Of a stretch of 35,334 nucleotides of DNA, positions 7,367-32,011 are shown one piece after another; positions within the stretch are counted from its first letter, which is position 1, and every line of letters begins with the position of its first letter. Under the pieces are notes generated by a model, which worked only from the letters and a program-made list of their open reading frames with translations, did no database searches and was not told the origin of the DNA. Both the position numbers and the translations under genes were made by a program. Source of the DNA: Alistipes sp. (lineage in GTDB: Bacteria; Bacteroidota; Bacteroidia; Bacteroidales; Rikenellaceae); assembly GCA_017629035.1 (NCBI GenBank), contig JAGBXX010000039.1, forward strand, positions 1-35,334, read 5' to 3'.

Positions 7367-9670
7367 ATGAAAAAAGGTATTTTGAGTGTCGTGATGATGT
7401 TGATGGCTCTTGCCATCGGTTTTGTGTCGTGCGAGAAGGAGCCAGTTTTGGAGTCGGGCAATATTGTACTATATCTCTCTGAACTCGAGGCTCAGCCCGA
7501 GGGCGAGGCACTTCGCTTTAACTACTCAATTACCACACCAGTCGATGGCGTGGAACTTGAGGTAGAGTGTGAGGCTGAGTGGGTTGAGATAAACGCTGTT
7601 ACAGCCTCGTTTATCGATATTAAAGTATTAAAAAATGACTCTGGCGAGGATCGCTCTACGGAGCTCAAGCTGAGCTATGGTAAAGAGGCTAAGAGTCTTA
7701 AGCTCAAGCAGAAAGCGTGGCTTGCACCATTGTCGTTGGTAGTAGATAGTGTCGATGCTACATCGGTGACTTTCAGCGTGTCGGCCCTTGACGAGGAGAC
7801 TACATGGATAGGTCAGATTGTCGACAAGGTGTGGTACGACCAGATGAGCGAGGAGGATGTCTTCAGCGAGGATATGCGCTACTATTATGCTATGGCCGAG
7901 GAGGCTGGTGTGAGCCTGGAGGAGTATCTTCCAAATATCTTGAGCAAAGGCTCGCACTCGGGACTACGCATGAAGGGTCTTGATCCAGAGTGGGAGTATG
8001 TGGTCTATATCTACGGTATGACTGCTACGGGCGAAAAGACCACATCTATCTACGCTAAGTCTTTCAAAACCGAGGCTCCATACCAGGGTAATGATGTTAC
8101 TTTCGATTTCAATATCACAGTGAACCGTGCTATTGCACATATCGAGATTACACCTTCGCACGAGGGTGTGGCATACTACAACAACCTTATCACACGCCAG
8201 GATTTCGAGGAGCTTTATGGCGAGGATATCTCTGTTGCTGCCGACGCCGTAATTGCCGATATGATTGAGGATTATGCCGCTTGGGACTACACTCTTGCCG
8301 AGACATTCGAGTACAACACCGACTATCTCTCTACCTCATACGAATTTGAGGGTATGGCCAACACCGAGTATATCGCCTTTGCCTTCAAGTGGAACGAGGA
8401 GTGTGAGCGTCTGAGCGAGGTGTCGTACGAGGAGTTCAAGGTGGGATCTATCCCTGCTTCGGAGAATCAGCTCTCGATGGAGATCTCGAACATCACCCAG
8501 ACAACGTTCTATGTCAAGGTGAATGCTACCAACAACGACCCATACGCAATGTTTGCTATCCCATCACGAGAGATCGGTAAGCTGCGTGATGATAACGAGA
8601 TTTTTAGCTATATTCTTAACAACTACGGTACCTCGTTCCTCTACAACTATATCTTTGAGGGCAGCATCGAGGGTACCTTCAGTGGCCTTGAGGCAGATAC
8701 AGAATATGCGGTGCTTCTGTTTGGCTACGAGGCGGGCACGCTCACAACAAAGATTGTGCGCAAGGTGATAACTACAGCCAAGGCTGGAGATATCGAGGCG
8801 TGTCAGTACGATATTGTGATCTCGGAGGTAGATGATCGTGAGGCACGAGTATCTATCACCCCATCAGATTACAGCATCTGGTACTACTGGAACGTGTTCG
8901 AAAAGTCGATGAGCGAGCAGGAGATCAAGGACTATATCTTGGATACCTACAATAGAGCGTACTATGGTGATTATTGGGAGTTTAGCTACTATGAGTTGGC
9001 TCAGGGTAAGGTCTCAAGCCGTCTTTCGCAGCTCAAGCCAGATACCGAGTATCACATTGTCATCATCCCGATGAATCCCGAGGAGTTTGAGTATGTAGGC
9101 TCGATGCGTACAGGTGGTGAGTTCAGAACAGAGCAGGCCGTTATTGCCGATATCAAGATCACAGCTGGCTTCAATGCATACTACAATGGCGATGAGGTGT
9201 CGGCACTCGAGCCCGACTACCTGAGCAACTATCAGGGTTGTGTTATCCTGCCTATAACCGTGGAGATCGAGGGTGACTGTTCGGGCTACCTCTTCACTAT
9301 CTTTACGTACCAGGAGGGCTTGGAGGATCCTGAGCAGTATAGTGACGATATTCTTATTGACAACCTCTACCAGGTTGGTGCTTACTGGTCGCCTGCATAC
9401 TTCCGTGGCATGTGGGATGTAGAGATGATGATTGCTGCCGTGGCATTCGACCACGACGACAACCCAAGCCCTGTATATCGTGAGCGATTTATCTGTACTC
9501 GTGAGGGTGCTGGCGATGCTCAGGAGTTTGTGGACTACTACATGGGTCGCACAAGTGCTACACGTTCGGTTGTAATCGACCAGGAGCTTAAGCCACAGAG
9601 TGCTCCAGAGCGCCCTATGCCAGTGGTTGAGAGAGTGCACAGTCGAGGTATGCACTTTGCAAAGCAATAG
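7367..9670 (+). CDS. Large lipoprotein with a BACON-like domain and tandem Fn3-like units
   Basis: This 767-residue protein has a lipoprotein signal peptide with Cys22 (FVSCEKE); the acidic residues after the Cys favour export to the cell surface in Bacteroidota. Residues 30-115 look like a BACON domain: CEAEWVEI, the NDSGEDRS turn and the closing KSLKLKQKA. Then come about four Fn3-like units (about 120-235, 237-362, 366-475, 480-595), each ending in a pattern such as LKPDTEYHIVIIPM. Most carry a helical, acidic insertion rich in Tyr. A final beta domain ends at about 725, followed by a polar tail. BACON proteins often bind glycans or mucin, but no enzyme domain is present. The function is unknown. 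Confidence 0.78.
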   Translation: MKKGILSVVMMLMALAIGFVSCEKEPVLESGNIVLYLSELEAQPEGEALRFNYSITTPVDGVELEVECEAEWVEINAVTASFIDIKVLKNDSGEDRSTELKLSYGKEAKSLKLKQKAWLAPLSLVVDSVDATSVTFSVSALDEETTWIGQIVDKVWYDQMSEEDVFSEDMRYYYAMAEEAGVSLEEYLPNILSKGSHSGLRMKGLDPEWEYVVYIYGMTATGEKTTSIYAKSFKTEAPYQGNDVTFDFNITVNRAIAHIEITPSHEGVAYYNNLITRQDFEELYGEDISVAADAVIADMIEDYAAWDYTLAETFEYNTDYLSTSYEFEGMANTEYIAFAFKWNEECERLSEVSYEEFKVGSIPASENQLSMEISNITQTTFYVKVNATNNDPYAMFAIPSREIGKLRDDNEIFSYILNNYGTSFLYNYIFEGSIEGTFSGLEADTEYAVLLFGYEAGTLTTKIVRKVITTAKAGDIEACQYDIVISEVDDREARVSITPSDYSIWYYWNVFEKSMSEQEIKDYILDTYNRAYYGDYWEFSYYELAQGKVSSRLSQLKPDTEYHIVIIPMNPEEFEYVGSMRTGGEFRTEQAVIADIKITAGFNAYYNGDEVSALEPDYLSNYQGCVILPITVEIEGDCSGYLFTIFTYQEGLEDPEQYSDDILIDNLYQVGAYWSPAYFRGMWDVEMMIAAVAFDHDDNPSPVYRERFICTREGAGDAQEFVDYYMGRTSATRSVVIDQELKPQSAPERPMPVVERVHSRGMHFAKQ

Positions 9671-9714
9671 GCGTCAAAAAGACTCTATTTGCGCCATTTA
9701 GAACAATTTATCAG

Positions 9715-9750
9715 CAGGGCTGTGTGACCTTAGGGTTGCACAGCCTTGTT
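9715..9750 (+). terminator. Terminator after the BACON/Fn3 lipoprotein
   Basis: A long hairpin with a 10-bp outer stem (CAGGGCTGTG with CACAGCCTTG) continues into TGACC/GGTTG around a TTAG loop. It is followed by TTTCTG, so the T-run is short. Confidence 0.8.
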
Positions 9751-9784: not shown

Positions 9785-9816
9785 TTTCGCTACGGAAAAA
9801 GTTTGTCTTATATTTG
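9785..9816 (+). promoter_or_regulatory. Promoter of the DUF4493/PCMD cluster
   Basis: TATATTTG (9809-9816) is a perfect -7 element. TTTC (9785-9788), 20 bases upstream, is a near-match -33. The start site would be near 9822 and the first ATG is at 9845. I see no other consensus promoter before 19487, so this may drive the whole cluster. Confidence 0.65.
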
Positions 9817-9844: not shown

Positions 9845-11650
9845 ATGAATATTTTTAACAAAATTAGTGTTGCTTTGTGCTCGATAGCTCTTGCTGTGTC
9901 GTGCGACGCTCCTATGGAGATTTCAGAGCCTAACCAGGCGGAGAGCTTGGAGGTAGGCTTTGAGCTTTCGGACAACGCGACACGTACGTTGCTTGACCCA
10001 GATGGAGTGACCGCAAAGTGGACGTCGGGCGATAAGGTTGCTGTATGGGCTAAGGGTGCCGATGGTTTTGCCTTTGCAAACACCGCATTCACCATGCGCT
10101 ACTACTCGCAGGATCTCTACACCAATGCCTACTTCACGGCAAATATCTCAGAGATGCCTCAGGGTGAGTATGAGTATATGCTCTCGTACCCTGTGCCGAC
10201 ATCGGTTGATGGCACTTTGGCAACATATCGTGTTGCTTCGCAGCAGAGTGGTAAGTACGATGGTAAGTACGACATCATGCTTGCCGAGCCTACGGTAGCT
10301 TCGGCACTCAGCAAGACAAGCCGCGTGGAGCTCAACACGGTTATGCGCCACAAGATGCATGCGCTCAAGATTACAGTTCCTGAGCGTAGCTCTAATTTTA
10401 CCGATAAGATCTACCGTCTTGAGATCATCTTCTCGAACGATGTTGTGGGTGATATCACTCTCGATGTGGCTAATCCCGAGGCAGCACCTATCTACACAAA
10501 CACCTCGAATACTGTTGTTTTGAGCAGCGAGGAGGGCTTCGACGTAGGTAGTGATATCTGGGTATTTGTGCTTCCTGGCACTATCTCGGGCGAGGTGAGC
10601 TACAAGATTAAGGGTCTCGTGCAGCGCTCTGAGTTGGCTACATACCCATTTGAGAAGGAGTTGCAGCCAGGTCGCATTACACCTATCCGCATGGCTATGC
10701 CTCCATTCGAGAAGTATACTGCACTCCACTTCTCGATTGGCGAGAACTATCTGGGCGAGGATTTCGACTTCTTTACGCTCTACGATCACAATGGTGCAAA
10801 CAAGGGTACATTCTACCGCAATGCCGAGAATCGCTACACTGTGGAGTACGAGGGTGAGTTCAACGCCGAGGAGTTTTCGAACACAACATGGAAGTTTGTC
10901 TTTGACTCAGAGAATGCTATCGTCTCTAATGACCTTAATATAGGTAGTGTGAAGCCATACTTTGAGCAGAATATTGCGCCAGTCGATGTACCATACTTGC
11001 TCTTCGAGAACTTCGAGAATGTGACCGAGAAGGAGAGCAACGGTAACAACTCATACCAAGCTTCGGACCGTGATCAGCCAGGTGTTTCGCTCGATGGCTC
11101 TATGCCTCTAAATGGTTGGAACGCAGCACGTTTCTGGCTTAAGCCTGGCGCTATGCGTATCAACTCACGCTACCAGTCAGTGAAGATTATCATGTCGTTT
11201 GCCTCATACCACCATGGTCGTATGGATACGCCTACGCTCCAGAGCATGGGTCTTAAGGAGGGTAAGAGCGTGAATGTCAAGGTAGATTTCGATGCAGCGA
11301 TGTATAAGCACACGAGCAGCTCGCTTAGCTTGAACTCAGGTACTATCAATATCGCTACGCACGAGAATCACAACAACCCTATCGATGGTATCCCAACAGG
11401 TTCAACCGGTATTACATCATCGTACGACACTACACTCGCCGATTTTGGTACAACGTACTTCAATGTAGCATTGCCTGACGATGCTGGTGAGGATGCCTTT
11501 GGCCAGAGTTTCCCAACCTACACTGCGGAGTTCCCTGTCTCAAGCGCATCGCGTATATGTTTCTATCCTACGCTCTCTACTGCGTCGGGTACGGGTAATA
11601 CTGAGGTAAATATCTATATCGACAACCTTCGTGTATCTATTTCGAAATAG
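9845..11650 (+). CDS. Fimbrillin-like lipoprotein, first gene of the surface cluster
   Basis: This 601-residue lipoprotein starts at 9845, not at the upstream ATG at 9746, because only this start gives the signal peptide MNIFNKISVALCSIALAVSC with Cys20 and lies after the promoter. The mature N-terminus carries the fimbrillin-like signature: NATRTLLDPDGV, then WTSGDKVAVWAKG (about 43-70). This is typical of FimA/Mfa-type and related Bacteroidota adhesin domains. The second half (about 400-601, starting LLFENFENVTEKES and ending VNIYIDNLRVSISK) looks like a beta-sandwich with a jelly-roll-type end, possibly carbohydrate binding. It leads a seven-gene cluster. The product is probably an adhesin or pilus-like surface protein; polymerisation is not shown. 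Confidence 0.72.
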   Translation: MNIFNKISVALCSIALAVSCDAPMEISEPNQAESLEVGFELSDNATRTLLDPDGVTAKWTSGDKVAVWAKGADGFAFANTAFTMRYYSQDLYTNAYFTANISEMPQGEYEYMLSYPVPTSVDGTLATYRVASQQSGKYDGKYDIMLAEPTVASALSKTSRVELNTVMRHKMHALKITVPERSSNFTDKIYRLEIIFSNDVVGDITLDVANPEAAPIYTNTSNTVVLSSEEGFDVGSDIWVFVLPGTISGEVSYKIKGLVQRSELATYPFEKELQPGRITPIRMAMPPFEKYTALHFSIGENYLGEDFDFFTLYDHNGANKGTFYRNAENRYTVEYEGEFNAEEFSNTTWKFVFDSENAIVSNDLNIGSVKPYFEQNIAPVDVPYLLFENFENVTEKESNGNNSYQASDRDQPGVSLDGSMPLNGWNAARFWLKPGAMRINSRYQSVKIIMSFASYHHGRMDTPTLQSMGLKEGKSVNVKVDFDAAMYKHTSSSLSLNSGTINIATHENHNNPIDGIPTGSTGITSSYDTTLADFGTTYFNVALPDDAGEDAFGQSFPTYTAEFPVSSASRICFYPTLSTASGTGNTEVNIYIDNLRVSISK

Positions 11651-11688
11651 AAATTTAATAGAGTATAAATCACATTAATCAATTATTT

Positions 11689-12453
11689 ATGAAAAAGTTT
11701 TTTACAATCGCATCGCTCGTGGCGTTGACTCTCTCGGCTTGTGCCAAGAAGGAGGCTCACACTGAGCAGGAGGGTAAAGGACAGGTGGCTTTCAGCTGCG
11801 CAGTGTCGACCGATGTCGATGCTACACGTGCATACGTTAGTTGCACAACCCCCCAAATCGGAGATTTTACCCTTGCTATCAAGGGTGGCGAGTATGAGGC
11901 TAACTACGCTTCGCTTGCAGAGTTTAACGATGGTGACAACTACTTGCGTTATGGCGAGTACGAGGCTACTGTAGTAGCTGGTAATTTGGCCGAGGAGGGC
12001 TACGACAAGGCTACTTTCGTTGGTCACAAGAGCTTCACTGTTAACGCTCGTCAGCACACCGATGTTGAGGTGACTGCAACTATTGCAAACGCTCTTGTTA
12101 GGGTTGAGACAACAGAGGATTTTGAGCGTTACTTCGAGGGTGGTCGCACTCTTACGCTCACAACCGAGGCAGGCAATAGCTTCGATGTTAGCCAGCAGAG
12201 TGAGTTGCTCTTCATTGCTCCATCATCGTTTACCGTGACTGGTACTGCCGTAAAGCAGTCAGCACAGTCTGGCAAGGAGGGTGTAACTGTGTCATTGCCA
12301 GAGTGCAAGTATGAGGATGTAAAGGCTCAGACACTCTACACCGTAAAGCTCGATGTTGAGAATGCTGGTGGTGCACACCTCGAGATTAGCATCAATGAGA
12401 CTCTTGTTGAGTCATACGATATTGAGCAGGAGCTAAACGATAACGCACAATAA
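11689..12453 (+). CDS. Short DUF4493-type lipoprotein
   Basis: This 254-residue lipoprotein has signal peptide MKKFFTIASLVALTLSAC (Cys18) followed by acidic and basic residues. The mature part has the pattern of DUF4493 proteins. GQVAFSCAVSTDVDATRAY is followed by a segment like FTLAIKGGEYE. Next is LRYGEYEATVVAG, with a growing-strand pattern through FVGHKSFTVNARQHTDV. After that comes a second beta half starting VEVTATIANALVRVE. Length is about one such module, without a C-terminal extra domain. It lies 38 bp after the fimbrillin-like gene and 13 bp before another DUF4493 gene. No catalytic residues are apparent. The function is unknown; surface exposure is inferred from the lipoprotein signal. 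Confidence 0.7.
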   Translation: MKKFFTIASLVALTLSACAKKEAHTEQEGKGQVAFSCAVSTDVDATRAYVSCTTPQIGDFTLAIKGGEYEANYASLAEFNDGDNYLRYGEYEATVVAGNLAEEGYDKATFVGHKSFTVNARQHTDVEVTATIANALVRVETTEDFERYFEGGRTLTLTTEAGNSFDVSQQSELLFIAPSSFTVTGTAVKQSAQSGKEGVTVSLPECKYEDVKAQTLYTVKLDVENAGGAHLEISINETLVESYDIEQELNDNAQ

Positions 12454-12466
12454 TTCAAGTAAAGAT

Positions 12467-14119
12467 ATGAAAAGAGTTGTAAAATTTATGAGCATCGCCC
12501 TTAGTGCACTCCTTGTGCTTGGCGCATGTAATAAGGATAAGGTTAATTATGTTGACCCAACAGACCAGGCAACAGATAACATCGGTTATCTCATGCTCGG
12601 CAATATGGAGGCTTCGATCTTGGAGGATACCGAGAATGTGGAGTCTGCAGCTACACGTGCTGAGGGTGTAGATATCAATGATTTCGACGTAGTTATCACA
12701 AGTGTTGCGGGCGAGACTATGGCCTCGTTTAAGTATGGCGAGCGTCCTACAGAGCCTATCGCTTTGGAGGGTGGTGTATATGCCATCAGCATGGTTTCTC
12801 GTCAGATGGAGGGTGCCGAGTGGGAGCAGCCTGTATACGCTGGCAAGAAGGAGGTTATCGTGACTCGTAAGCAGACAACAAACGTGACAGATCTCGTTTG
12901 TAAGCTTGCTAATATCAAGGTTACTGTTGACTACTCAGTAGACCTCAAGGAGCAGCTTGACTCGGAGTACACATCGATGACTGTGGCTGTTAATGACAGC
13001 GAGTTGGTATTCGTTTATGGCGAGGAGCGTGCTGCATACTTCGCTCCAGAGTCTGAGGAGAGCACACTCAAGCTTACATTCAAGTGCCGCTACAAGGGCG
13101 AGACTAAGGATATCGTGATGACAAACGAGATCAAGGGTGTTAAGCCTGCACAGTGGCGTAAGATTAACGTTGTTGTTCAGCATGTTGCCGATGGTACTGG
13201 TTCAATTGGTATCGTGTGCGACACATGGACTTATGACGAGGAGGTTACATTCGACACCTCAGTAGCAATCATGGAGGAGGTTATTCCAGATGATACCGAC
13301 GCTCCAGAGATCGTTTGGGAGGGTCACGACCTTGCCGAGGCCTTCGAGCTTACTGACGAGATGTTCGATGCTGAGGGTAACTTCACTAAGAGCATCAACC
13401 TCGATATCACTGCTAAGTCACCTATCAAGTCGCTTGTTGTGAAGGTTGCTTCGGACAATGCAGACTTTGTTAAGGCATACTCAGAGATTATGTCTACAGA
13501 GGAGGATTTGTGCGCACCTACCACTTCAAATACAATCCTCAAGATGATGGGTTACCCAACAGATGCTAAGGATAACACTGCAGTGCGTATCAAGCTTGCT
13601 TCACAGACCGACCTTCTCAAGTCATACGAGGGTACTCACACTTATGAGATTACTGTTACTGATACTGTTGGTGCTAAGACTACTGCTACACTTACTGTTA
13701 AGTATGGCCAGAACGTATCTCCAAAGATTGAGTGGGTTGGCTACGATATCGACCAGCGTCAGACAATCAAGACAGGCGATACATGTATGATTCGTGTAAC
13801 AGCTCCACTTGCTATCCAGGACTTCGAGATTGAGATCGTATCTAATGCACTTACTCCAGAGGAGTTGCAGGGTGTAGGTCTTGCAGCTGAGTTCAGCCTT
13901 GTAAACTCTACAGAGATGTTTACTTCACTCTCAGGCCTTGGCTTCCCTGTAGGTGATCAGGTTTACAACCAGACTTTGATCTCTGAGGATCAGCTTAATA
14001 TCTCTAATTTCTTGGGCGTTCTCGGTATGCTCGGTGCTGGTGACCACGACTTCGTGATGACTGTTACCGATATGGAGGGTAACGCAACTACCAAGACTGT
14101 AATGATGCGTTTTGAGTAG
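12467..14119 (+). CDS. DUF4493-type lipoprotein with two Ig-like repeats
   Basis: This 550-residue lipoprotein (Cys21 in VLGACNKDK) has a DUF4493-like module at about 37-265: YLMLGNMEAS, INDFDVVITSVAGE, LEGGVYAISMVSR, PVYAGKKEVIVTRKQTTNV and CKLANIKVTVDY. Two homologous beta-sandwich repeats follow, 280-412 (starting PEIVWEGHDL) and 419-550 (starting PKIEWVGYDI). Both end in a TYEITVTD / DFVMTVTD strand and a closing basic strand. The repeats resemble bacterial Ig-like stalk domains. The gene is tightly packed, 13 bp after and 16-31 bp before its neighbours, so it is translated from the same operon. A structural or binding role at the surface is inferred. Confidence 0.72.
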   Translation: MKRVVKFMSIALSALLVLGACNKDKVNYVDPTDQATDNIGYLMLGNMEASILEDTENVESAATRAEGVDINDFDVVITSVAGETMASFKYGERPTEPIALEGGVYAISMVSRQMEGAEWEQPVYAGKKEVIVTRKQTTNVTDLVCKLANIKVTVDYSVDLKEQLDSEYTSMTVAVNDSELVFVYGEERAAYFAPESEESTLKLTFKCRYKGETKDIVMTNEIKGVKPAQWRKINVVVQHVADGTGSIGIVCDTWTYDEEVTFDTSVAIMEEVIPDDTDAPEIVWEGHDLAEAFELTDEMFDAEGNFTKSINLDITAKSPIKSLVVKVASDNADFVKAYSEIMSTEEDLCAPTTSNTILKMMGYPTDAKDNTAVRIKLASQTDLLKSYEGTHTYEITVTDTVGAKTTATLTVKYGQNVSPKIEWVGYDIDQRQTIKTGDTCMIRVTAPLAIQDFEIEIVSNALTPEELQGVGLAAEFSLVNSTEMFTSLSGLGFPVGDQVYNQTLISEDQLNISNFLGVLGMLGAGDHDFVMTVTDMEGNATTKTVMMRFE

Positions 14120-14150
14120 CATAATTAACCCCTAAATGATTATGTCTATT

Positions 14151-16184
14151 ATGAAAAAGTTATTTATGATGTTGAGTGCGATGCTCGTGTTGGCATCATG
14201 CTCAAAGGATATTGATCTTGGTGTTGAGATGGCTCAAGGTGAGGGCGCTATGCGCTTTGGCGTTAGCCTCAGATCTGAGATCGCTCCCGACCAGAGTGTC
14301 GTAGTTAAAATATATAAGGTAGAGGGTGACGAGGAGAACCTCGTGCGCCGCTACGACTCATTGCAGGATGTTCCTGAGTATCTCGCATTGCTCTCAGGCG
14401 ACTATGTTGCAAAGGTGCAGATTGGTAAGAAGAACGTGGTATCGTTCGACGAGAAGCTCTACATGGGAGAGCAGGAGTTCGCCGTACGTGATGCCGAGGT
14501 TACCACTGTAAATGTAGAGTGTAATCTTATCTCAACTATCGTGCGTGTAAACTATGACGCATCGGTTGCTGAGAAGCTCAACGAGGGTTTCTTTACCTCT
14601 GTATCTGTAGCCCAGGAGTACGATCCAGCAGCTATCAAGCGTGGCGATATCCAGGCGTTGAACTACACTGAGACTAAGGATGGCTATGTTATCATGCCTG
14701 AGGGTCAGACATCTCTCTTCTGGCACTTCGAGGGTACTCACCCTGTTGAGGGCGATATCATGAAGGAGGCTATAATTGAGAACATCAAGCCTTCGACAAA
14801 GTATACTATCAACTTGAAGTACTCTAAGGATGCTCCAGGTAGCCTTACATTTGAGGCTACTGTCGATGAGTCAGTTATCGAGTTCGACGATATCATCGTC
14901 TTCAGCCCAGATCCAACCATCGTGCCTGAGGGCTTTGATATGACCGAGGAGCAGCTCTCAACTACTGAGTCACGCACGTACAACATCTCGGCATTGGCTT
15001 CAATTAGCCTTATGCAGATGTCAATCGATGGCGTGGATTACAACCTCTTGGAGTCTACACCTGAGGGTATCACCCTTACTAAGGTTGATGATATGACCTA
15101 TACACTCGTTATTGGCTCATCATTCTTCGATGCAGTAACTGGTGGTAACCAGGTTGTTAGCTTCCATATCGAGGACGTCGATGGTGGTAAGTTGACCTCT
15201 GATGTTGCCTACAAGGTGCAGGGTGTTATGCCATTGACTGCTGCAGACTACGATCTTTGGTTTGGTACTGCTAAGTTCAAGGCTATGGTACTCGGCGAGC
15301 CATCATCTGTCAAGGTTGCTTATAGCGCAAATGGCGGTGAGTGGCAGGAAGTAGAGGCTACACTCGGTGCTGATGGTAACTATGTCGCTGAGTTTAATGG
15401 CTTCTCTGCTTCAACAACTTACACATACAAACTTATTGTTGATAGCGATGATTCTGGTAAGAGCCAGTCTATTGCTACTGCCGATGGTGCTCAGTTGCCT
15501 AATGGTGACATGGAGCGTTGGCACAAGGCTTCATGGGTACTCCCTTATGGTCAGGGCGATGCTCCATTCTGGCTCACTGGTAACGAGGGTGGTAACATGG
15601 TAGGTGCTACACTTACTCAGTCATCTACCGACGTTCGCCCAGGCTCTACTGGTTCATCATCTGCTTACCTCAAGTCGCAGTTTGCCTCAATGATGGGTAT
15701 CGGTAAGTTTGCTGCGGGTAACCTCTTTACTGGTACATTTATGCTTAACGGTATGGATGGTATTGTGACCTTCGGTCGTGACTTCACATTCACTGCTAAG
15801 CCTAAGAGCCTCTCGTTCTGGTGGAAGAACAACGAGGGCGCTATCGACCAGGGTTCTCACGCTTCAGGTACCGATATCTACACTATCATGGTGATTATTA
15901 CAGATGGTACAACCTACTCTGTAAATACTAAGGATACCAGCACATTCCTCAAGATTGATGAGTTGTACAAGACTCCAGGTGTTATTGGCTACGGCTCTAT
16001 CTCAGGTAGCGACTCGCACTCTGAGTGGACTGAGCAGACAATCGACATCACCTACCGTGAGGATATGATGAACCAGAAGCCTAAGAAGATCATCGTGTCG
16101 TTCACACCTTCAGGCTATGGTGACTACTTCTGCGGTTCTACATCATCGTGGATGTATGTCGATGATATCGTATTGAACTATTAA
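14151..16184 (+). CDS. DUF4493 + Ig-like + PCMD lipoprotein
   Basis: This lipoprotein has 677 residues from the ATG at 14151, which gives signal peptide MKKLFMMLSAMLVLASC (Cys17); in-frame ATGs at 14136 and 14142 would add five or three residues. In order it holds a DUF4493-like module (about 30-250), an Ig-like unit related to those of the previous gene (about 256-358), an Fn3-like unit (about 370-445) and a C-terminal PCMD domain (449-677). The PCMD domain shows LPNGDMERW, PFWLTGNEGG, TDVRPGSTGS, MGIGKFAAGNLFTG and a closing YVDDIVL strand. PCMD (putative carbohydrate metabolism domain) has a galactose-binding-like beta-sandwich look, and its biochemical role is not established. A hairpin terminator follows. 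Confidence 0.8.
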   Translation: MKKLFMMLSAMLVLASCSKDIDLGVEMAQGEGAMRFGVSLRSEIAPDQSVVVKIYKVEGDEENLVRRYDSLQDVPEYLALLSGDYVAKVQIGKKNVVSFDEKLYMGEQEFAVRDAEVTTVNVECNLISTIVRVNYDASVAEKLNEGFFTSVSVAQEYDPAAIKRGDIQALNYTETKDGYVIMPEGQTSLFWHFEGTHPVEGDIMKEAIIENIKPSTKYTINLKYSKDAPGSLTFEATVDESVIEFDDIIVFSPDPTIVPEGFDMTEEQLSTTESRTYNISALASISLMQMSIDGVDYNLLESTPEGITLTKVDDMTYTLVIGSSFFDAVTGGNQVVSFHIEDVDGGKLTSDVAYKVQGVMPLTAADYDLWFGTAKFKAMVLGEPSSVKVAYSANGGEWQEVEATLGADGNYVAEFNGFSASTTYTYKLIVDSDDSGKSQSIATADGAQLPNGDMERWHKASWVLPYGQGDAPFWLTGNEGGNMVGATLTQSSTDVRPGSTGSSSAYLKSQFASMMGIGKFAAGNLFTGTFMLNGMDGIVTFGRDFTFTAKPKSLSFWWKNNEGAIDQGSHASGTDIYTIMVIITDGTTYSVNTKDTSTFLKIDELYKTPGVIGYGSISGSDSHSEWTEQTIDITYREDMMNQKPKKIIVSFTPSGYGDYFCGSTSSWMYVDDIVLNY

Positions 16185-16192
16185 AAACCTTA

Positions 16193-16237
16193 GAGATAGT
16201 GGTGCTGATTAGTGCCACTATCTCAATACCATTTTTT
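16193..16237 (+). terminator. Terminator or attenuator inside the cluster
   Basis: GAGATAGTGG starts a 13-bp stem (16193-16205 with 16212-16224, two wobble pairs, loop TGATTA). After AATACCA there is a run of six T (16232-16237). The T-run ends one base before the ATG of the next gene at 16239, so transcription of the barrel genes seems to depend on readthrough. Confidence 0.72.
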
Positions 16238-16238
16238 G

Positions 16239-17048
16239 ATGAAGAAATTTTATATAACGCTATTGTTATTGGCCGCAACTCTTGTAGCGAATGCCCAGCA
16301 GCCCGAGGAGGTAGTGCTCCCCGTGGCCGAGGATTGTGTGGAGGGTGAGTTATCGGCAAACGATGCTCGCAACGAGCGAGGTTTCTTCTCCGACGATAAC
16401 TTTGTGCCTAAGGGCCAGTGGATATTCGGCGGTACTGCCTCATACTCTGCACACCGCAATAATAATTATCAGTTTACACTTATCAACGGCATCGACTCCG
16501 AGGGTTATAGTGTCAGCGTTAGCCCAATGATTGCCTACGCTCCATGGAAGAACATGGCTGTGGGTGTGCGCTTTGGCTATTCACGCTCGTTGCTTGCCTT
16601 GGATAATGCTGCTGTGTCAGTTTCGGGCACTAACATCACCGTTGATATGTTCCACCAGCTCAAGCACTCATATACAGGCACGCTCTTCTGGCGCCCATAT
16701 ATTCCGCTTGGCCATACCAACCGTTTTGCCTTCTTTGCCGAGGTGCAGCTTAATCTCTCTGGTGGCCAGAGCAGGGCTGTAGCAGCAACCAACGTTGTCG
16801 ATGGCATGCAGAACTATCGTGGTACCTATGCCAAGCAGTTTGGTGCTCAGTTGGCTTTGCAGCCAGGTATCGTGGCATTCATTACTAACAATGCTGCTGT
16901 GGAGCTCTCAATCGGTGTACTCGGTGTCGGCTTTGACCGCACACGTCAGGTCAAGAACCAGATTATCGAGGCCAACGTCAAGTCTATTGATACAAACTTT
17001 AAGCTGAACCTGCTCTCTGTGGGATTCGGTATGTCGTTCTACCTCTAA
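16239..17048 (+). CDS. Outer-membrane beta-barrel protein A
   Basis: This 269-residue protein has a Sec signal peptide (MKKFYITLLLLAATLVANA, cut before QQPEE) and no lipobox. After an acidic linker the sequence becomes alternating polar/hydrophobic strands with aromatic girdles: KGQWIFGGTASYSAHRN, VSVSPMIAYAPWKNMAVGVRFGY, GTLFWRPYIPLG, FAFFAEVQLNLSGG and a last strand SVGFGMSFYL. I count roughly 10 strands, so a small outer-membrane barrel is likely. The start at 16239 is set by the signal peptide; an upstream GTG at 16212 lies in the terminator stem. It is paralogous in layout to the next gene. It could anchor or assemble the lipoproteins of the cluster, which is inference. Confidence 0.75.
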   Translation: MKKFYITLLLLAATLVANAQQPEEVVLPVAEDCVEGELSANDARNERGFFSDDNFVPKGQWIFGGTASYSAHRNNNYQFTLINGIDSEGYSVSVSPMIAYAPWKNMAVGVRFGYSRSLLALDNAAVSVSGTNITVDMFHQLKHSYTGTLFWRPYIPLGHTNRFAFFAEVQLNLSGGQSRAVAATNVVDGMQNYRGTYAKQFGAQLALQPGIVAFITNNAAVELSIGVLGVGFDRTRQVKNQIIEANVKSIDTNFKLNLLSVGFGMSFYL

Positions 17049-17060
17049 AATCGCAGCACT

Positions 17061-17891
17061 ATGAGAAAATTTATATTTTTGCTTATCGCCGCTGCGTTCA
17101 CGCTCTCTGCAGCCACTGCTCAGGAGCTCGACACACAGCTCTCGCAGGATAGCATATCTACTGAGCTCCAGGGACGATTCCTCCCTACACGTCAGCGCAT
17201 TGACCGCAAGATCGGTCAGAATAAGTTTGTCTACAAGGGCGAGTATATGCTCGGTCTTACAGCCTCGTATGGTAGCCTCTCGGCCGATGATGCCGATGTT
17301 ATGCTTCTGCTCGATAACCTCAACGTAGGTCTTCGTTCGGCTACCGTGAAGCCATTCTTTGCATACTCATATCGCGATAATCTTGCAGTGGGTTTCCGCT
17401 TTGGCTACGAGCTTATCGACGGTACGCTTGGCAATGCAGACCTCAATCTCGGCCTTCTTGCCGATATGGACAACATGGGTATCTCGAACGTAGGTCTTCG
17501 TAGCGAGAACTTCACTTGGTCGCTTTTCCACCGCCACTACCTCGGTCTTGACCGTCGTGGTATCGTGGGTGTGATCATGGAGACTGAGCTCATGCTCAAG
17601 ACGGGTACTACCTCTTCGTGGAGTGGTGCGGGCGATGACTTCAGCCGCAGCGACAGCCGCAACTTCGCTGCACGTTTCAACTTTAACCCTGGCTTGGGTG
17701 TCTATGTATTCCCTCAGGTATGTCTTACTGTGACTGTGGGCGTGGGTGGTCTTTACTACAACAATATTCGTCAGATCGATGCTGCAGGTATCGAGACAGG
17801 ACGCCGCGACCGCACAGGATTGTCATTTAAGCTCAACTTGGCCGACATCCAGATTGGCCTTGTAGCACATTTGTGGAACAAAAAAAAGTAG
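17061..17891 (+). CDS. Outer-membrane beta-barrel protein B
   Basis: This 276-residue protein has the signal peptide MRKFIFLLIAAAFTLSAATA (cut before QELD) and no lipobox. It has the same layout as barrel A: a polar linker, then KGEYMLGLTASYGSL, VKPFFAYSYRDNLAVGFRFGY, a middle WSLFHRHYLGL strand, and a tail IQIGLVAHLW with KKK. The shared pattern of a first strand with a Gly-Thr/Ala-Ser-Tyr core and an AVGxRFGY strand suggests the two barrels are distant paralogues from a duplication. It lies 12 bp after barrel A and 6 bp before the PCMD lipoprotein, so the three are likely translated from one mRNA. No known porin signature was recognised. Confidence 0.75.
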   Translation: MRKFIFLLIAAAFTLSAATAQELDTQLSQDSISTELQGRFLPTRQRIDRKIGQNKFVYKGEYMLGLTASYGSLSADDADVMLLLDNLNVGLRSATVKPFFAYSYRDNLAVGFRFGYELIDGTLGNADLNLGLLADMDNMGISNVGLRSENFTWSLFHRHYLGLDRRGIVGVIMETELMLKTGTTSSWSGAGDDFSRSDSRNFAARFNFNPGLGVYVFPQVCLTVTVGVGGLYYNNIRQIDAAGIETGRRDRTGLSFKLNLADIQIGLVAHLWNKKK

Positions 17892-17897
17892 TAAGCT

Positions 17898-19487
17898 ATG
17901 ATTAAGTATTTCAGATATTTGTTTGTGGCCGTTGCTACATGTTGTGCAGTGGGCTGTATTGAGAATGATATCCCATATCCTGTTGAGCGCCTCGACATCC
18001 TCACACTTGAGGCGGAGGGCGTGAAGTCGCAGAGCATCGAGAGCTCGCTAAAGAGCGTTAAGCTCGAACTCGAGGAGCAGACCGATATTCGCAACGTAAA
18101 TATTAAGTCGGTGACATTTACCGAGGGTGCGGAGTCGTCGGTTAAGTTCCCTGGCACGTTCGACCTTCGTACACCTTTGTATGTTGAGCTTACGAAGTAT
18201 CAGAGCTTTGAGTGGACTATCTCTGCAACGCAGAGCATCGAGCGCTACTTCAAGGTTGAGGGTCAGATTGGTGAGTCGGAGATCGACCCTGAGCACTTTA
18301 TCGCCAAGGCCTATGTCCCTATGGATCATGATATGGAGAGTATCAACATCGAGGCTCTGAAGCTTGGCCCAGAGGGTATCTCTACCTACTCACATACGCT
18401 CGAGGAGCTTACAAATTTCAACGACACAGCACGCTACGTCGAGGTGAGCTACCATGGCGATATTGTCGAGAAGTGGACACTCATCATTGAGAAGCGTGAT
18501 ATCGAGGTTGAGTTTGTGTCGGTCGATGCTTGGGCTAAGCGTATCTGGCTCAGTGCCAATGGCCGTGCTATGTCCCAGCTCGGTTTCAGATATCGTGCTG
18601 CGGGTGCTCAGGATTGGATCGAGGTTGAGAACGTAACTGTCGATGGCGGTAGCTTCACTGCCTGCATCGAGGGTCTTGAGACACTCTCAGAGTACGAGGT
18701 GTTGGCCTACTCGAACGAGAACCTCACGGAGGTTGTTACGGTATCTACCGAGGATGTCACCTACTTGCCAAACATGGATTTCGAGGAGTGGTCAACCGTG
18801 AACAACGTTGTATGCCCATATCTCGATACTCCATTCTGGGGCTCGGGTAACGATGGTGCTGCTATTGCTGGCACAACGCTCACAGAGCCTACAACAGATA
18901 TTCGCCCAGGTAGCCAGGGTAGCTACGCAGCGTCGCTCCAGTCAAAGAAGGCGTCGTTGATGGGTATTGGTAAGTTTGCCGCAGGTAACCTCTTTATTGG
19001 CGAGTTTGGTGGCCTTCAGGGTACCAACGGTCTTGTTAACTTCGGTCGTCCATGTAGTGCTCGCCCAGTGGCTCTTCACGGCTGGGTTAAGTACAACTGT
19101 GGTGTCATCGACGAGGTGGGCAAGGTGCCATCTGCACGTCCTGAGCTCAAGAAGGGCGATATGGACGAGGGTCAGATTGTTATCGCCGTAGGTAACTGGA
19201 CTGCTGAGGAGTATGGTGGTAGCGAGAGCTGTCCTGTGGTTGTAAATACTCAGGATCAGAGCACCTTCTTCGACCCTCGTGGCAAGGATGTTATCGGCTC
19301 GGGTGAGCTTATCTTCACCGAGTCTACCGATGGCTGGGTGGAGTTCACACTTCCGCTTGAGTATCGCTCAACATCTGAGATTCCTACGCATATCATCATC
19401 ATCTGCACAGGTTCTCACTTCGGTGACTACTTCACTGGTTCGACACAGAGCCTTATGCTTGTCGATGATTTTGAGCTAATCTACTAG
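17898..19487 (+). CDS. PCMD-domain lipoprotein, last gene of the cluster
   Basis: This 529-residue lipoprotein has Cys20 in CAVGCIENDIPYP, with acidic residues just after it. Residues 30-200 form two beta domains of a DUF-like type (a first strand LDILTLEAEG and the EWTISATQSIERYF strand). An Fn3-like unit covers about 203-285. A C-terminal PCMD domain (289-529) has LPNMDFEEW, PFWGSGNDGA, TDIRPGSQGS, MGIGKFAAGNLFIGEF and a closing LMLVDDFELIY. That domain matches the PCMD of the gene at 14151 closely in the central block, so the two share a recent origin. It lies 6 bp after barrel B. It is probably a surface partner of that barrel; substrate and activity are unknown. Confidence 0.8.
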   Translation: MIKYFRYLFVAVATCCAVGCIENDIPYPVERLDILTLEAEGVKSQSIESSLKSVKLELEEQTDIRNVNIKSVTFTEGAESSVKFPGTFDLRTPLYVELTKYQSFEWTISATQSIERYFKVEGQIGESEIDPEHFIAKAYVPMDHDMESINIEALKLGPEGISTYSHTLEELTNFNDTARYVEVSYHGDIVEKWTLIIEKRDIEVEFVSVDAWAKRIWLSANGRAMSQLGFRYRAAGAQDWIEVENVTVDGGSFTACIEGLETLSEYEVLAYSNENLTEVVTVSTEDVTYLPNMDFEEWSTVNNVVCPYLDTPFWGSGNDGAAIAGTTLTEPTTDIRPGSQGSYAASLQSKKASLMGIGKFAAGNLFIGEFGGLQGTNGLVNFGRPCSARPVALHGWVKYNCGVIDEVGKVPSARPELKKGDMDEGQIVIAVGNWTAEEYGGSESCPVVVNTQDQSTFFDPRGKDVIGSGELIFTESTDGWVEFTLPLEYRSTSEIPTHIIIICTGSHFGDYFTGSTQSLMLVDDFELIY

Positions 19488-19507
19488 TCGACTCTAAATA
19501 GAGCAAG

Positions 19508-19545
19508 AGAGGGGGTATCCAAAGCAGATGCCCCCTCTTTGTTTA
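19508..19545 (+). terminator. Terminator at the end of the surface cluster
   Basis: A 12-bp stem (19508-19519 with 19527-19538, one G-T pair, core GGGGG/CCCCC) is followed by TTGTTTATTTTC. The T-tract also contains the TTTG -33 element of the next gene. Confidence 0.88.
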
Positions 19546-20276: not shown

Positions 20277-22160
20277 CTACTTGCGCAGAGCCAATGGCTT
20301 TGGTGCGCTGAGTGCCTGGCCCGATACATCCTCGCTGATATCCTGGGCTGTTACCTTGCCACTCCACTGGCCAGTAATCTTGTTGCCACCATCGTCCACA
20401 AGGTCAAATACGAAGTGGTAGTTGCCATTGCCTGCGTCCTCGATAGTCACAGTGCCCGATGCGATAGGAGCAGTATCAGATGAGTAGCCCTCAGAGTCTG
20501 GCGTGAGGTCGCCATACCATGTAAAGAGGATGCTGCCAGAGAAGCTGACAATACCTGTAAACATTGTGTGGTCGGCAACATCGAGCGACACGTTGTATGT
20601 GCCCGTAGGCAATGATGTGCGTGAGTTGCTACTGCTGTCGACTATAAACTCAGTAGTGAACATGTCACCATAACCATCTGGATACTCGCTATTTACGCCG
20701 TAGAGCATGAACATCCAGTTGTCAAAGCCTGGCTTCATGCACTCACCAAGGCAGAATGCGTAGCCCTCAGCATTTGCTGGGAAGTCGTATACGTGGTCAG
20801 CATCGAGAGTTGTCCATGGACGTGGAAGCATAGTCTCGTCGTTGTCATTGAAATTGCCACTGTTGATCTTACCTGAGAATGTAAGCGTAATCTTGACGCC
20901 ATTGTCGGCAACAAAGTTCATAGAGATATTGTGCGATGTGCCGTCGTACTCAACATCGAACGAGCCCTCGGTAACAAGTCCCACCTTTTTAATTTGGCCA
21001 TTCTCGACATATTGTAAGTATGTGCCTGTGAAGTATGAGTCACCAAAGTACTCTGTGATCTTGCCTGCGTCGAAGAAGTATGGCTGGCAGTAGATCTCGC
21101 TGATAACATCGTATACCACATCGTAGTGGCCAGCAGCAAGAGGCACGCTTGGCTCATTATAGTCTGGATACTTAGGCATAAATACTCGGCTCAAGTGGAG
21201 GTAATAACCCTTCTGTAATGAGCCATTCTCGTCGAATGTGCCGTCGAACATCTCAACACCCACCTCGTCGCAGAATGGGAAGAACCAGCTGCCCCAGTAG
21301 CGCATCTGTGCTTCGTCCATGTCGATGGTGATATCCTCCTCGAAGAACTCGTAGGCTGAAGTACCGCCCTGAACAAACTGTATAGAGCCAGTGTAACGTG
21401 CTGAGAACTCCATATTGTCAAGGAGCATCAATACACCCTCGACTGTGACTGTGTAGGTTGGACCTGTGCGCTCAACTGTTACGGTACCGACGATAGGCGA
21501 TGTGATGATCTCTCCGTCAGCAACAATATCTACGTACGATGATGATGGGTCGTAGGTAAATGGCGAGAGGTCGCTACCAGCCTGGTATACACCATTAGGG
21601 AGTACGGGGTTGATAGGGTCGCTATCTGCCTCGTTATAGAAGTCGATAAATACTTGAATATCACCATCCCAGCCAAGCTCTGTGGTATTTCCAAATGTAA
21701 ACTCGTAGTTGCCGGCGAGGGCAGAGTTATCGTTGCGATATACGGCGCTTACGAGCTTGTTGAGTTCATAGCCCTCAAATGGCTCCTCGCTCTGTTCCAA
21801 GGTTGTAAATGTGCTCTTAGTTGTAGCCTCTGTAGTCCCGTTTACGGCAAGGGCAAAGAGTGTATACTCGGTGTTAGGCGTTAGCCCCGTGATGCTATTC
21901 TCTGCAGCTTCAACCTTTGTGCCCTCGCTCTTGATGGTAGTTGCTGTGGCCTCGGCTGTGCCCTCAACGCAGTAGTAGTATGCCTCCTCGGCGTTGGTTG
22001 TGGTAACCGAGAAATTGACACTATCGGTGCTAACATTCAAAATCTCAATGCTCACACCAGGTTTTTTTGTCTCGTTTGCAGGCTCATCTGTCTGGCACGA
22101 TGACACGAGGAGTGACATCGCGGCTATCGCAATAGCTGAAAAATTGAAAAATCTTCTCAT
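20277..22160 (-). CDS. Lipoprotein with an Fn3-like unit and repeated beta domains
   Basis: This 627-residue lipoprotein has Cys22 in LVSSCQTDEPA, with acidic residues after it that favour surface export. Residues 35-122 form one Fn3-like unit (VSIEILNVSTDSVNFSV, then ITGLTPNTEYTLFALAVNG). The rest is an array of beta domains with recurring phrases such as LPNGVYQAG, LAAGHYDVVYD and LPTGTYNVSLD followed by strands closing in SGSILF, TFSGKI and QWSGKV. This suggests at least three related modules of about 110-150 residues. It shares this module type with the gene upstream, and the two form an operon with a 22-bp gap. I recognise no enzyme signature. It may bind glycan or protein at the surface. 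Confidence 0.75.
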   Translation of the reverse strand: MRRFFNFSAIAIAAMSLLVSSCQTDEPANETKKPGVSIEILNVSTDSVNFSVTTTNAEEAYYYCVEGTAEATATTIKSEGTKVEAAENSITGLTPNTEYTLFALAVNGTTEATTKSTFTTLEQSEEPFEGYELNKLVSAVYRNDNSALAGNYEFTFGNTTELGWDGDIQVFIDFYNEADSDPINPVLPNGVYQAGSDLSPFTYDPSSSYVDIVADGEIITSPIVGTVTVERTGPTYTVTVEGVLMLLDNMEFSARYTGSIQFVQGGTSAYEFFEEDITIDMDEAQMRYWGSWFFPFCDEVGVEMFDGTFDENGSLQKGYYLHLSRVFMPKYPDYNEPSVPLAAGHYDVVYDVISEIYCQPYFFDAGKITEYFGDSYFTGTYLQYVENGQIKKVGLVTEGSFDVEYDGTSHNISMNFVADNGVKITLTFSGKINSGNFNDNDETMLPRPWTTLDADHVYDFPANAEGYAFCLGECMKPGFDNWMFMLYGVNSEYPDGYGDMFTTEFIVDSSSNSRTSLPTGTYNVSLDVADHTMFTGIVSFSGSILFTWYGDLTPDSEGYSSDTAPIASGTVTIEDAGNGNYHFVFDLVDDGGNKITGQWSGKVTAQDISEDVSGQALSAPKPLALRK

Positions 22161-22182
22161 GGGGTATATAGTTTTATATTTG

Positions 22183-25480: not shown

Positions 25481-25517
25481 AGGTAGGATAATTCTTTGAG
25501 AATTTTTCCTACCTTTG
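25481..25517 (+). promoter_or_regulatory. Long palindrome overlapping the -7 element of the GH97 gene
   Basis: AGGTAGGA (25481-25488) pairs with TCCTACCT (25507-25514), and inside it AATTCT pairs with AGAATT around a TTG loop, 14 bp in all. The -7 element TACCTTTG (25510-25517) starts within the right arm. No good -33 is seen. It may terminate the peptidase transcript, act as an operator, or both. Confidence 0.6.
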
Positions 25518-25543
25518 TCTATGTATTGATAATCAGTGTAACT

Positions 25544-31987: not shown

Positions 31988-32011
31988 AGTAGCGCACATT
32001 TATAAGGGGTA

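What the first reader, a model, noticed from the sequence alone, without database searches (positions are those of the whole stretch)
9845..19487. Seven-gene fimbrillin/DUF4493/PCMD/beta-barrel cluster: candidate undescribed surface system
The sequence shows seven co-directional genes, mostly 6-54 bp apart, behind one consensus promoter. Five are lipoproteins (fimbrillin-like, three with DUF4493-type modules, one PCMD) and two are small outer-membrane barrels with the same layout. Family knowledge: DUF4493 and PCMD are Bacteroidota domains without an assigned function, and fimbrillin-like proteins build surface structures. Inference: the barrels and lipoproteins form one surface assembly, perhaps an adhesin or glycan-binding complex.
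Basis: partly seen in the sequence, partly recalled or inferred. Interest (0 to 1): 0.72.

Follow-up and report, generated by a model that had tools for sequence, protein, structure and literature searches.

The report
Conserved barrel-lipoprotein surface cassette in Alistipes
A block of seven neighbouring genes in a gut bacterium encodes what looks like a shared cell-surface structure made of sugar-binding-type lipoproteins and two small outer-membrane proteins; close relatives almost always keep it, distant marine relatives carry a shorter version, and no name for it was found.

Summary
Seven co-directional genes (gaps 38, 13, 16, 54, 12, 6 bp) lie between two hairpin terminators behind a Bacteroidota -7 box. 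The barrel is in 167 of 180 genomes of the genus (69 of 70 near-complete). All seven genes stand in order on one strand in 40 of 49 named loci of 20 kb or more. In 295 genomes of the order DUF4493 and the barrel co-occur (25 both, 4 barrel only, 9 DUF4493 only; Fisher 9e-25), while PCMD alone is common (138). The core order recurs in Parabacteroides distasonis and marine Flammeovirga. Gene 1 carries a fimbrillin domain (Mfa_like_1). A basic, trypsin-type site behind the first strand of the DUF4493 and fimbrillin domains resembles type V pilin processing; DUF4493 itself was not shown to be a fimbrillin. I infer a lectin-bearing, fimbria-like surface assembly docked on the barrels: shared system near-certain, fibre mechanism about 0.4.

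The parts
9713..9750 (+). hairpin terminator of the upstream gene
   Evidence: 17-pair stem and T-rich tail
9809..9816 (+). -7 promoter box TATATTTG (Bacteroidota type)
   Evidence: read directly; consensus TAnnTTTG recalled; -33 box imperfect
9845..11650 (+). g1: lipoprotein, fimbrillin (Mfa_like_1) domain plus a C-terminal domain (L) of about 300 aa
   Evidence: ORF; profile match of the N-domain family to Mfa_like_1, 98.2%; ortholog in L058 passes Pfam PF13149, as do 10 of 18 in the genus
9983..9985 (+). Arg codon of the ATR|T site, 27 residues after the lipid Cys of g1
   Evidence: motif scan
11689..12453 (+). g2: lipoprotein, single DUF4493 domain
   Evidence: PF14900 E 7.5e-30
11827..11829 (+). 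Arg47 of the ATR|A site, 19th residue of the DUF4493 match of g2
12467..14119 (+). g3: lipoprotein, DUF4493 plus C-terminal Ig-like region (m)
   Evidence: PF14900 E 2.6e-37; weak Ig-type hits
12656..12658 (+). Arg64 of the ATR|A site in g3
14136..16184 (+). g4: lipoprotein, DUF4493 plus PCMD jelly-roll
   Evidence: PF14900 E 1.4e-30 and PF13201 E 8.8e-31
14271..14273 (+). Arg46 of the LR|S site in g4 (weaker than the TR form; orthologs in other Alistipes have TRA)
16239..17048 (+). g5: small outer-membrane barrel B1 (predicted)
   Evidence: family in 167 of 180 genomes of the genus; weak OMP_b-brl hits; strand periodicity
17061..17891 (+). g6: second barrel B2, paralogue of B1
   Evidence: homology E 8.1e-19; first and second barrels split cleanly in the tree, 35 and 35
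17898..19487 (+). g7: lipoprotein, Ig-like N-domain plus PCMD jelly-roll (BT2081-like)
   Evidence: PF13201 E 5.2e-37; PDB 3hbz E 3e-9
17955..17981 (+). CIENDIPYP motif of g7, lipid Cys plus eight conserved residues
   Evidence: C-x-N-[DT]-[ILV]-P-Y type pattern in 45 of 49 g7-type proteins
19506..19540 (+). hairpin terminator closing the unit
   Evidence: 14-pair stem and T-rich tail, just behind the g7 stop at 19487

Best explanation
The seven genes are one dedicated outer-surface system, built on a barrel plus PCMD-lipoprotein core. Most likely (inferred) g1-g4 are exported as surface lipoproteins. A trypsin-type (Arg/Lys) surface protease then cuts about 25-45 residues after the lipid, removing the first beta-strand of each DUF4493 or fimbrillin domain, so that subunits join by strand exchange as in type V pili. 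The result would be a short, probably mixed fibre carrying jelly-roll (PCMD, perhaps L) lectin-type domains. g7, in which the site is not enriched, keeps its lipid and acts as the anchor; the barrels B1 and B2 dock the base in the outer membrane. Shown: composition, order, co-inheritance, the conserved site, a fimbrillin domain in g1. Inferred: surface location, cleavage, polymerisation, docking, ligand binding.
For: Joint system: barrel in 167 of 180 genomes of the genus. All seven genes in order on one strand in 40 of 49 named loci of 20 kb or more, and 57 of all 80 fetched. DUF4493 with barrel in 295 genomes: 25/4/9/257, Fisher 8.7e-25. Split locus in G175 with both halves kept. Same core order in P. 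distasonis and Flammeovirga. Barrel followed by a PCMD lipoprotein in 41 of 47. Fibre reading: g1 domain = Mfa_like_1. [ST]R[ASTG] at 15-60 residues after the lipid Cys in 22 of 24 F-L and 73 of 125 cassette DUF4493 proteins, against 5 of 44 g7-type and 4 of 63 other lipoproteins. The wider [STL][RK][ASTG] form: 22/24 and 102/125, against 13/44 and 12/63. A Gly-x-hydrophobic-x-hydrophobic strand lies before the site in 69 of 72, 18.8 expected from shuffles; in g2 it lies inside the Pfam match. PMC7616799 (passages read) states that Rgp protease action frees a strand in P. gingivalis pili and that FimB tethers FimA. PCMD has a jelly-roll with a putative sugar pocket in BT2081 (PMC2954218, passages read).
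Against: DUF4493 could not be shown to be a fimbrillin. Profile comparison with a FimA/Mfa1 N-domain alignment gives only 9.2%, 7.0% (E 0.0051) once the one protein that also matches DUF4493 is dropped; with Mfa_like_1 5.3% (E 0.0074, 28 columns); with full Mfa1 0.4%. The first two exceed the five control domains (0.1-0.7%) but are far below acceptance, and no solved pilin is hit. Known type V pili have no barrels (recalled). Single-domain DUF4493 subunits are missing in ten loci (L076-L085), which argues against a long homopolymer. The basic site is also in 9 of 9 solitary DUF4493 proteins (LK[SA] in eight, TKS in one), so it belongs to the family, not the system; g4 in the window's own clade lacks the TR form; P. 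distasonis mostly has Lys. No maturation protease is tied to the locus: the nearby C11 gene recurs in 1 of 123 fetched loci.
Confidence: 0.42

Rival explanations
1. A non-fibrous glycan-capture complex: barrels and lipoproteins form a compact surface platform that binds polysaccharide (host, plant or the cell's own capsule) through the jelly-roll domains, without strand exchange.
For: Two PCMD domains of the BT2081 kind, whose C-terminal domain has a putative carbohydrate pocket and whose paralogues sit in PULs (PMC2954218, passages read); a GH97 gene 6 kb away.
Against: No SusC/SusD hit in the seven genes or in 13 other window genes scanned, and no enzyme is part of the recurring unit; the predicted barrels are small; the fimbrillin domain in g1 and the basic pre-domain site are unexplained; nearly universal in the genus and present in marine Cytophagales, unlike niche-specific PULs.
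Confidence: 0.27
2. A display or export machine: the barrels are dedicated partners that carry or hold the lipoproteins across the outer membrane, with g7 as adaptor; the DUF4493 proteins are cargo.
For: Smallest recurring unit is barrel plus PCMD lipoprotein (L273, L279, L298); a conserved CIENDIPYP-type motif right behind the lipid of g7 (45 of 49) that is absent in the pairs without DUF4493; clean split of first and second barrels, as from one early duplication.
Against: Barrels of about 220 residues are too small for a protein channel (recalled of small barrels); many Bacteroidota surface lipoproteins need no dedicated barrel (recalled); no direct evidence of transport.
Confidence: 0.23
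3. Neighbouring but functionally separate lipoprotein and barrel genes kept together by chance or shared regulation.
For: DUF4493 occurs without the barrel in 9 genomes and PCMD in more than 100.
Against: Order kept across families and orders; co-occurrence even when unlinked.
Confidence: 0.03

Closest known systems
Type V pili (FimA-E, Mfa1-5; Bacteroidia)
   Same: Lipoprotein subunits, a fimbrillin (Mfa_like_1) domain in g1, a basic cleavage-type site behind the first strand, one subunit in which the site is not enriched as candidate anchor.
   Different: No FimA or Mfa2 family hit in the operon and only a sub-cut-off, partly signal-peptide match of g2 to Mfa1 (E 0.01, 15 bits against 130); DUF4493 not provably homologous; two dedicated barrels and PCMD domains are not part of Fim/Mfa operons (recalled).
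BT2081 (PDB 3hbz), first solved PCMD protein
   Same: g7 matches it over the PCMD domain (E 3e-9); same Ig-like plus jelly-roll layout inferred.
   Different: BT2081 and several paralogues lie in PULs with SusC homologues (PMC2954218); here there is a small barrel instead.
SusC/SusD-type glycan uptake loci (PULs)
   Same: Outer-membrane barrel paired with sugar-binding-type surface lipoproteins.
   Different: No TonB-dependent transporter, SusD or enzyme in the unit.
Solitary DUF4493 proteins in nine genomes without a barrel match
   Same: DUF4493 lipoprotein with a basic residue at the same place (LK[SA] or TKS).
   Different: 384-453 aa, single among other genes in the nine loci looked at, no barrel found.

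Membership tests
Type V pilus | Fimbrillin-fold subunit domain (FimA, Mfa1 or Mfa_like) | tested here: inconclusive
   Met for g1 (98.2% by profile; PF13149 over cut-off in 10 of 18 orthologs, and in L058). Not met for DUF4493 by profile (7.0% to FimA/Mfa1 N-domains, 5.3% to Mfa_like_1; 0.4% to full Mfa1; no pilin).
Type V pilus | Lipoprotein precursors with a basic (Arg) cleavage site that removes the first strand | tested here: inconclusive
   Site and preceding strand present and enriched; actual cleavage not testable; mostly Lys rather than Arg in P. distasonis.
Type V pilus | Anchor subunit of the FimB/Mfa2 family | tested here: not met
   No Pfam hit at E 1 or NCBIfam hit at E 0.1 to FimB/Mfa2 in any of the seven genes; g7 is a different family with a possibly similar role.
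Type V pilus | Polymerised filament on the cell surface | not testable with these tools
   -
PCMD family (BT2081-like) | PF13201 above the curated cut-off | tested here: met
   g4 107.9 and g7 128.3 bits, cut-off 28
DUF4493 family | PF14900 above the curated cut-off | tested here: met
   g2 104.9, g3 129.3, g4 107.3 bits, cut-off 27
SusC/SusD polysaccharide-utilisation locus | SusC-type transporter with SusD lipoprotein in the unit | tested here: not met
   No such Pfam hit in the seven genes or in 13 other window genes scanned
OMP_b-brl outer-membrane barrels (PF13505) | PF13505 above the curated cut-off | tested here: not met
   13.9 bits for g5, none for g6, 23.3 for ortholog L088, cut-off 28.7; barrel nature remains a prediction

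The most novel reading that the evidence does not exclude
A separate class of Bacteroidota surface organelle: a short, lectin-bearing fibre of DUF4493 subunits, matured by an Arg/Lys protease and assembled by strand exchange, docked on its own outer-membrane barrels through the PCMD lipoprotein. It would be older than the split between gut Bacteroidales and marine Cytophagales (unless transferred), built stepwise: barrel plus PCMD pair, then DUF4493 genes, then barrel duplication and a fimbrillin gene.
Probability: 0.3. Interest if true: 0.8.

Novelty: new variant of a known kind. Interest (0 to 1): 0.62.

Why it matters
Alistipes is a common gut genus whose surface is little known (recalled), and this operon is nearly universal in it. 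The result places DUF4493, which no searched paper names, in a defined gene system with a fixed partner (the barrel, annotated only as 'hypothetical protein' in P. distasonis and Flammeovirga), and shows that one kind of PCMD protein belongs there rather than in PULs. That turns two domains of unknown function into a testable question, with P. distasonis as a culturable species. If the fibre reading is right, it links type V-like assembly to dedicated outer-membrane barrels, which known Fim and Mfa operons lack (recalled).

Tried and rejected
Tried without result: scan of genome contigs with the broad barrel alignment A1 (no stretch conserved enough), so a narrower alignment A2 was used. PDB profile searches with the barrel family (three lectin chains, E 0.067 or worse, taken as chance) and with single-domain DUF4493 (best E 0.011, no pilin); g3 (one short match, E 0.00088) and g1 (none). 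PHROGs: two weak, uninformative hits. Phylum-wide barrel search: 26 of 345 genomes with a match, most of them weak; regions of 12 of the 25 other genomes were fetched and 1 of the 12 (L298) has the PCMD partner.

Considered and rejected: a PUL (no SusC/SusD); a mobile or accessory island (nearly universal in the genus; GC like the surroundings; the plasmid hits are one chromosome-like P. distasonis contig and two Cytophagales megaplasmids); PCMD as the marker of the system (138 of 295 genomes have PCMD); the nearby C11 protease as a conserved member (1 of 123 fetched loci; many loci are short, and that one is probably a near-identical species); TR as a mark of cassette DUF4493 only (solitary ones have LK[SA] or TKS). 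No gingipain-type C25 hit in the genome, but its control genomes did not ring either, so absence is not shown.

Limits and mends: loci were fetched because they hold the barrel, so order counts are conditional on it. The 295-genome test is not, but treats genomes as independent (the 25 'both' genomes fall in 14 families), and rests on two searches whose draw is the same as far as the listed handles show. In one 'both' genome (G129) barrel and DUF4493 genes lie on different contigs and the DUF4493 proteins are of another type. Of the four barrel-only genomes three (G219, G232, G306) have weak barrel matches. Domain labels outside the window come from my own HMMs; my ORF picker missed one barrel each in L080 and L083, which one search shows. 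Motif counts shift slightly with the lipid-Cys rule (23/24, 74/119 including 3 mislabelled rows, 5/41, 4/43; 22/24, 73/125, 5/44, 4/63). The first fimbrillin comparison (99.1%) held one cassette g1 (L186) among its 19 Mfa_like rows; without it the match is 98.2%, and that figure is used. The FimA alignment likewise held L214, which also matches DUF4493; without it 9.2% falls to 7.0%. In one search g1 against FimA gave 12.5%, but that stretch includes the signal peptide.
Full report
What is there. The window lies in a draft genome of 1.8 Mb in 41 contigs, 84.7% complete, probably metagenome-assembled. The nearest named relatives of g5 are Alistipes and other Rikenellaceae, by title mostly from animal guts. 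The seven genes, their gaps and their domain content were checked. They are g1 (fimbrillin domain F plus C-terminal domain L), g2 (DUF4493), g3 (DUF4493 plus Ig-like region m), g4 (DUF4493 plus PCMD), g5 and g6 (paralogous predicted barrels B1 and B2) and g7 (Ig-like n plus PCMD). A hairpin at 9713-9750, a -7 box at 9809-9816 and a hairpin at 19506-19540 suggest one transcription unit; co-transcription itself was not tested.

Is it a system? A barrel of this family is in 167 of 180 genomes of the genus, the window's own counted, and in 69 of 70 that are at least 90% complete and at most 5% contaminated; nearly all show two matches (exceptions seen: G772 with four, G800 and G810 with one). Of the 62 barrel-bearing relatives found, I fetched 40 regions. 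With the window that makes 41 loci, annotated. 16 show F-L, D, D-m, D-n-P, B1, B2, n-P in this order on one strand (in L065 the n label is missing; in L092 the second barrel scores slightly closer to B1). 5 (L068-L072) hold all seven with the two barrels turned round and divergent. 3 have the same order with one gene not called or fused by my ORF picker (L058, L064, L073). 10 (L076-L085) have a multi-domain DUF4493/PCMD protein in place of F-L and D (one barrel each not called in L080 and L083). 4 (L088-L091) have one barrel and the core D, D-m, D-n-P, B, n-P (extra or fused PCMD and DUF4493 genes aside). 3 hold the barrels and n-P with one or no DUF4493 gene beside them (L074, L086, L087). 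In L087's genome (G175) three DUF4493 genes are on another contig. Among the 80 best named loci from a scan that found 358, 57 show all seven in order on one strand; of the 49 with at least 20 kb of DNA, 40 do.

Co-inheritance, tested without choosing loci. In 295 genomes of the order the barrel is in 29 and DUF4493 in 34; 25 have both, 4 only the barrel, 9 only DUF4493, 257 neither (Fisher 8.7e-25). Genomes are not independent; the 25 fall in 14 families. In the nine DUF4493-only genomes I looked at one locus each: a single DUF4493 protein of 384-453 aa among other genes (G231 and G317 have a second hit that I did not look at). PCMD, by contrast, is in 138 of the 295, so it marks nothing by itself. 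The gene next to the last barrel is a PCMD lipoprotein in 41 of 47 loci; the six others are four inverted loci (L068, L069, L071, L072) and two doubtful barrels (L278, L280).

How far it reaches. Three records in the plasmid collection match B1. In P. distasonis (L309) and Flammeovirga kamogawensis (L310) the annotation reads DUF4493, DUF4493, DUF4493, hypothetical protein, PCMD; P. distasonis has two further DUF4493 genes behind. Persicobacter (L311, unannotated) shows two DUF4493 genes, barrel, PCMD by my labels. So the core is found in gut Bacteroidales and in Cytophagales (Flammeovirga is marine by recall). Three loci hold a barrel and an n-PCMD lipoprotein without DUF4493 beside them: L273 and L279 in the order, L298 in another family of the class. 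In a tree of 82 barrels the 35 first and 35 second barrels split without error (support 1.0). Six single-barrel loci (L088-L091, L276, L277) form their own clade, L275 groups with the first barrel of L092, and the three pairs lie apart. This fits a history of barrel plus PCMD, then DUF4493 genes, then one barrel duplication with a first-gene addition. The rooting is midpoint only, so the direction is an inference.

What the parts say. PCMD: BT2081 (3hbz) and three other solved structures match g7; the C-terminal jelly-roll of BT2081 has a putative sugar pocket (PMC2954218, passages read). F: the family of g1 N-domains matches Mfa_like_1 from 18 other proteins at 98.2% (E 4.8e-14), the five non-fimbrial control domains at 0.7% or less; by coordinates, 10 of 18 cassette g1 proteins in the genus pass Pfam's own cut-off. 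DUF4493: no secure relation to fimbrillins. Against FimA/Mfa1 N-domains it gives 7.0% (E 0.0051), N-terminus on N-terminus, controls 0.1-0.3%; against Mfa_like_1 5.3% over 28 columns at the C-terminal end. One protein in G129 is hit by both PF14900 (3.8e-11) and, below the cut-off, by PF06321 (9.9e-4). g2 has a sub-cut-off NCBIfam match to the Mfa1 family (E 0.01, 15 bits against 130; starts in the signal peptide). These are leads, not proof. Barrels: predicted only; the 10-residue strand scan gives 14 amphipathic segments in each of B1 and B2, which includes loops and cannot fix the strand number.

The processing-type site. In g1, g2 and g3 a T-R followed by T or A stands 27, 29 and 43 residues after the lipid Cys. 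Across loci, [ST]R[ASTG] at 15-60 residues after the Cys is in 22 of 24 F-L and 73 of 125 cassette DUF4493 proteins, against 5 of 44 g7-type and 4 of 63 other lipoproteins (Fisher 1.5e-16 for DUF4493 against the last two together). Allowing Lys and a preceding Leu: 22/24, 102/125, 13/44, 12/63, and 9 of 9 solitary DUF4493 proteins. In 69 of 72 the stretch before the site contains Gly-x-hydrophobic-x-hydrophobic (18.8 expected), and in g2 the site lies inside the Pfam match (29-250, Arg47). A cut there would take the domain's own first strand, much as described for type V pili, where Rgp protease action frees a strand and FimB tethers the fibre (PMC7616799, passages read; Xu 2016 and Shibata 2020 not read, recalled). 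g7 is not enriched for the site and instead keeps CIENDIPYP at its lipid (45 of 49; two of the four misses differ by one or two letters, the other two are DUF4493-free pairs). Against this: g4 of the window's clade has only LRS, P. distasonis mostly uses Lys, and no protease is tied to the locus.

Explanation. The joint system is near-certain. The physical model, a lectin-bearing fimbria-like assembly with g7 as anchor and the barrels as base, is my best guess at about 0.4. A compact glycan-binding platform (0.27) and a display or export device (0.23) are live rivals. A long homopolymer is unlikely, since a single-domain DUF4493 subunit is absent, by my labels, in L076-L085 and in Flammeovirga.

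Known or new. It meets the family tests for DUF4493 and PCMD. It is not filed as a type V pilus: g1 passes the fimbrillin test, but no FimB/Mfa2 anchor is present and DUF4493 is unproven. No paper in the held library contains DUF4493 or PF14900, and searches for Alistipes with fimbrillin or type V pili gave nothing on this locus by their listing (15 of 16 listed). A study of P. distasonis surface structures looked for Fim and Mfa genes and mentions neither PCMD nor any DUF family (PMC9409006, passages read). Most subscription journals were not searchable.

Noticed in passing
24276-25457 (+): Clostripain-family (C11) lipoprotein, a type of Arg-specific protease (specificity recalled), 4.8 kb behind the cassette; one of three C11 matches in the genome, but found in only 1 of 123 related loci (L094).
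   Followed up: yes
29694-31999 (-): A C5 cytosine DNA methylase next to a 358-aa protein without Pfam match, in a stretch of 38-43% GC between groES and a RarA-like gene (last two names from recall of the sequence): looks like an acquired restriction-modification pair.
   Followed up: partly
L273:8661-10572, L279:7067-9052, L298:6982-8862: Barrel plus PCMD lipoprotein pairs without DUF4493 beside them; their lipid-proximal motif differs (C-x-[KD]-E-x-x-[FY]-G instead of NDIPYP).
   Followed up: partly
L263-L271: Solitary DUF4493 proteins of 384-453 aa in nine genomes, with LK[SA] (eight) or TKS (one) where cassette proteins often have TRA; what they do and whether their neighbours recur was not studied.
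   Followed up: partly
L309 (NZ_OY725756.1): The record is labelled plasmid 11 of P. distasonis but carries pckA and metG, so it may be a chromosomal fragment.
   Followed up: no
7367-9670 (+): BACON/fn3-type lipoprotein (sub-cut-off hits) just upstream of the cassette, matched in only 3 of 41 loci, counting the window.
   Followed up: partly
20277-23937 (-): Two lipoprotein-like genes on the opposite strand behind the cassette, one with an fn3 domain; not part of the recurring unit.
   Followed up: partly
25496-27592 (+): GH97 glycoside hydrolase; its conservation near the cassette was not examined.
   Followed up: no
L124, L125: One draft genome (JAGBFA01) holds the cassette on two contigs with equal match scores: a real duplication or an assembly artefact; G772 with four matches is probably the same genome.
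   Followed up: no
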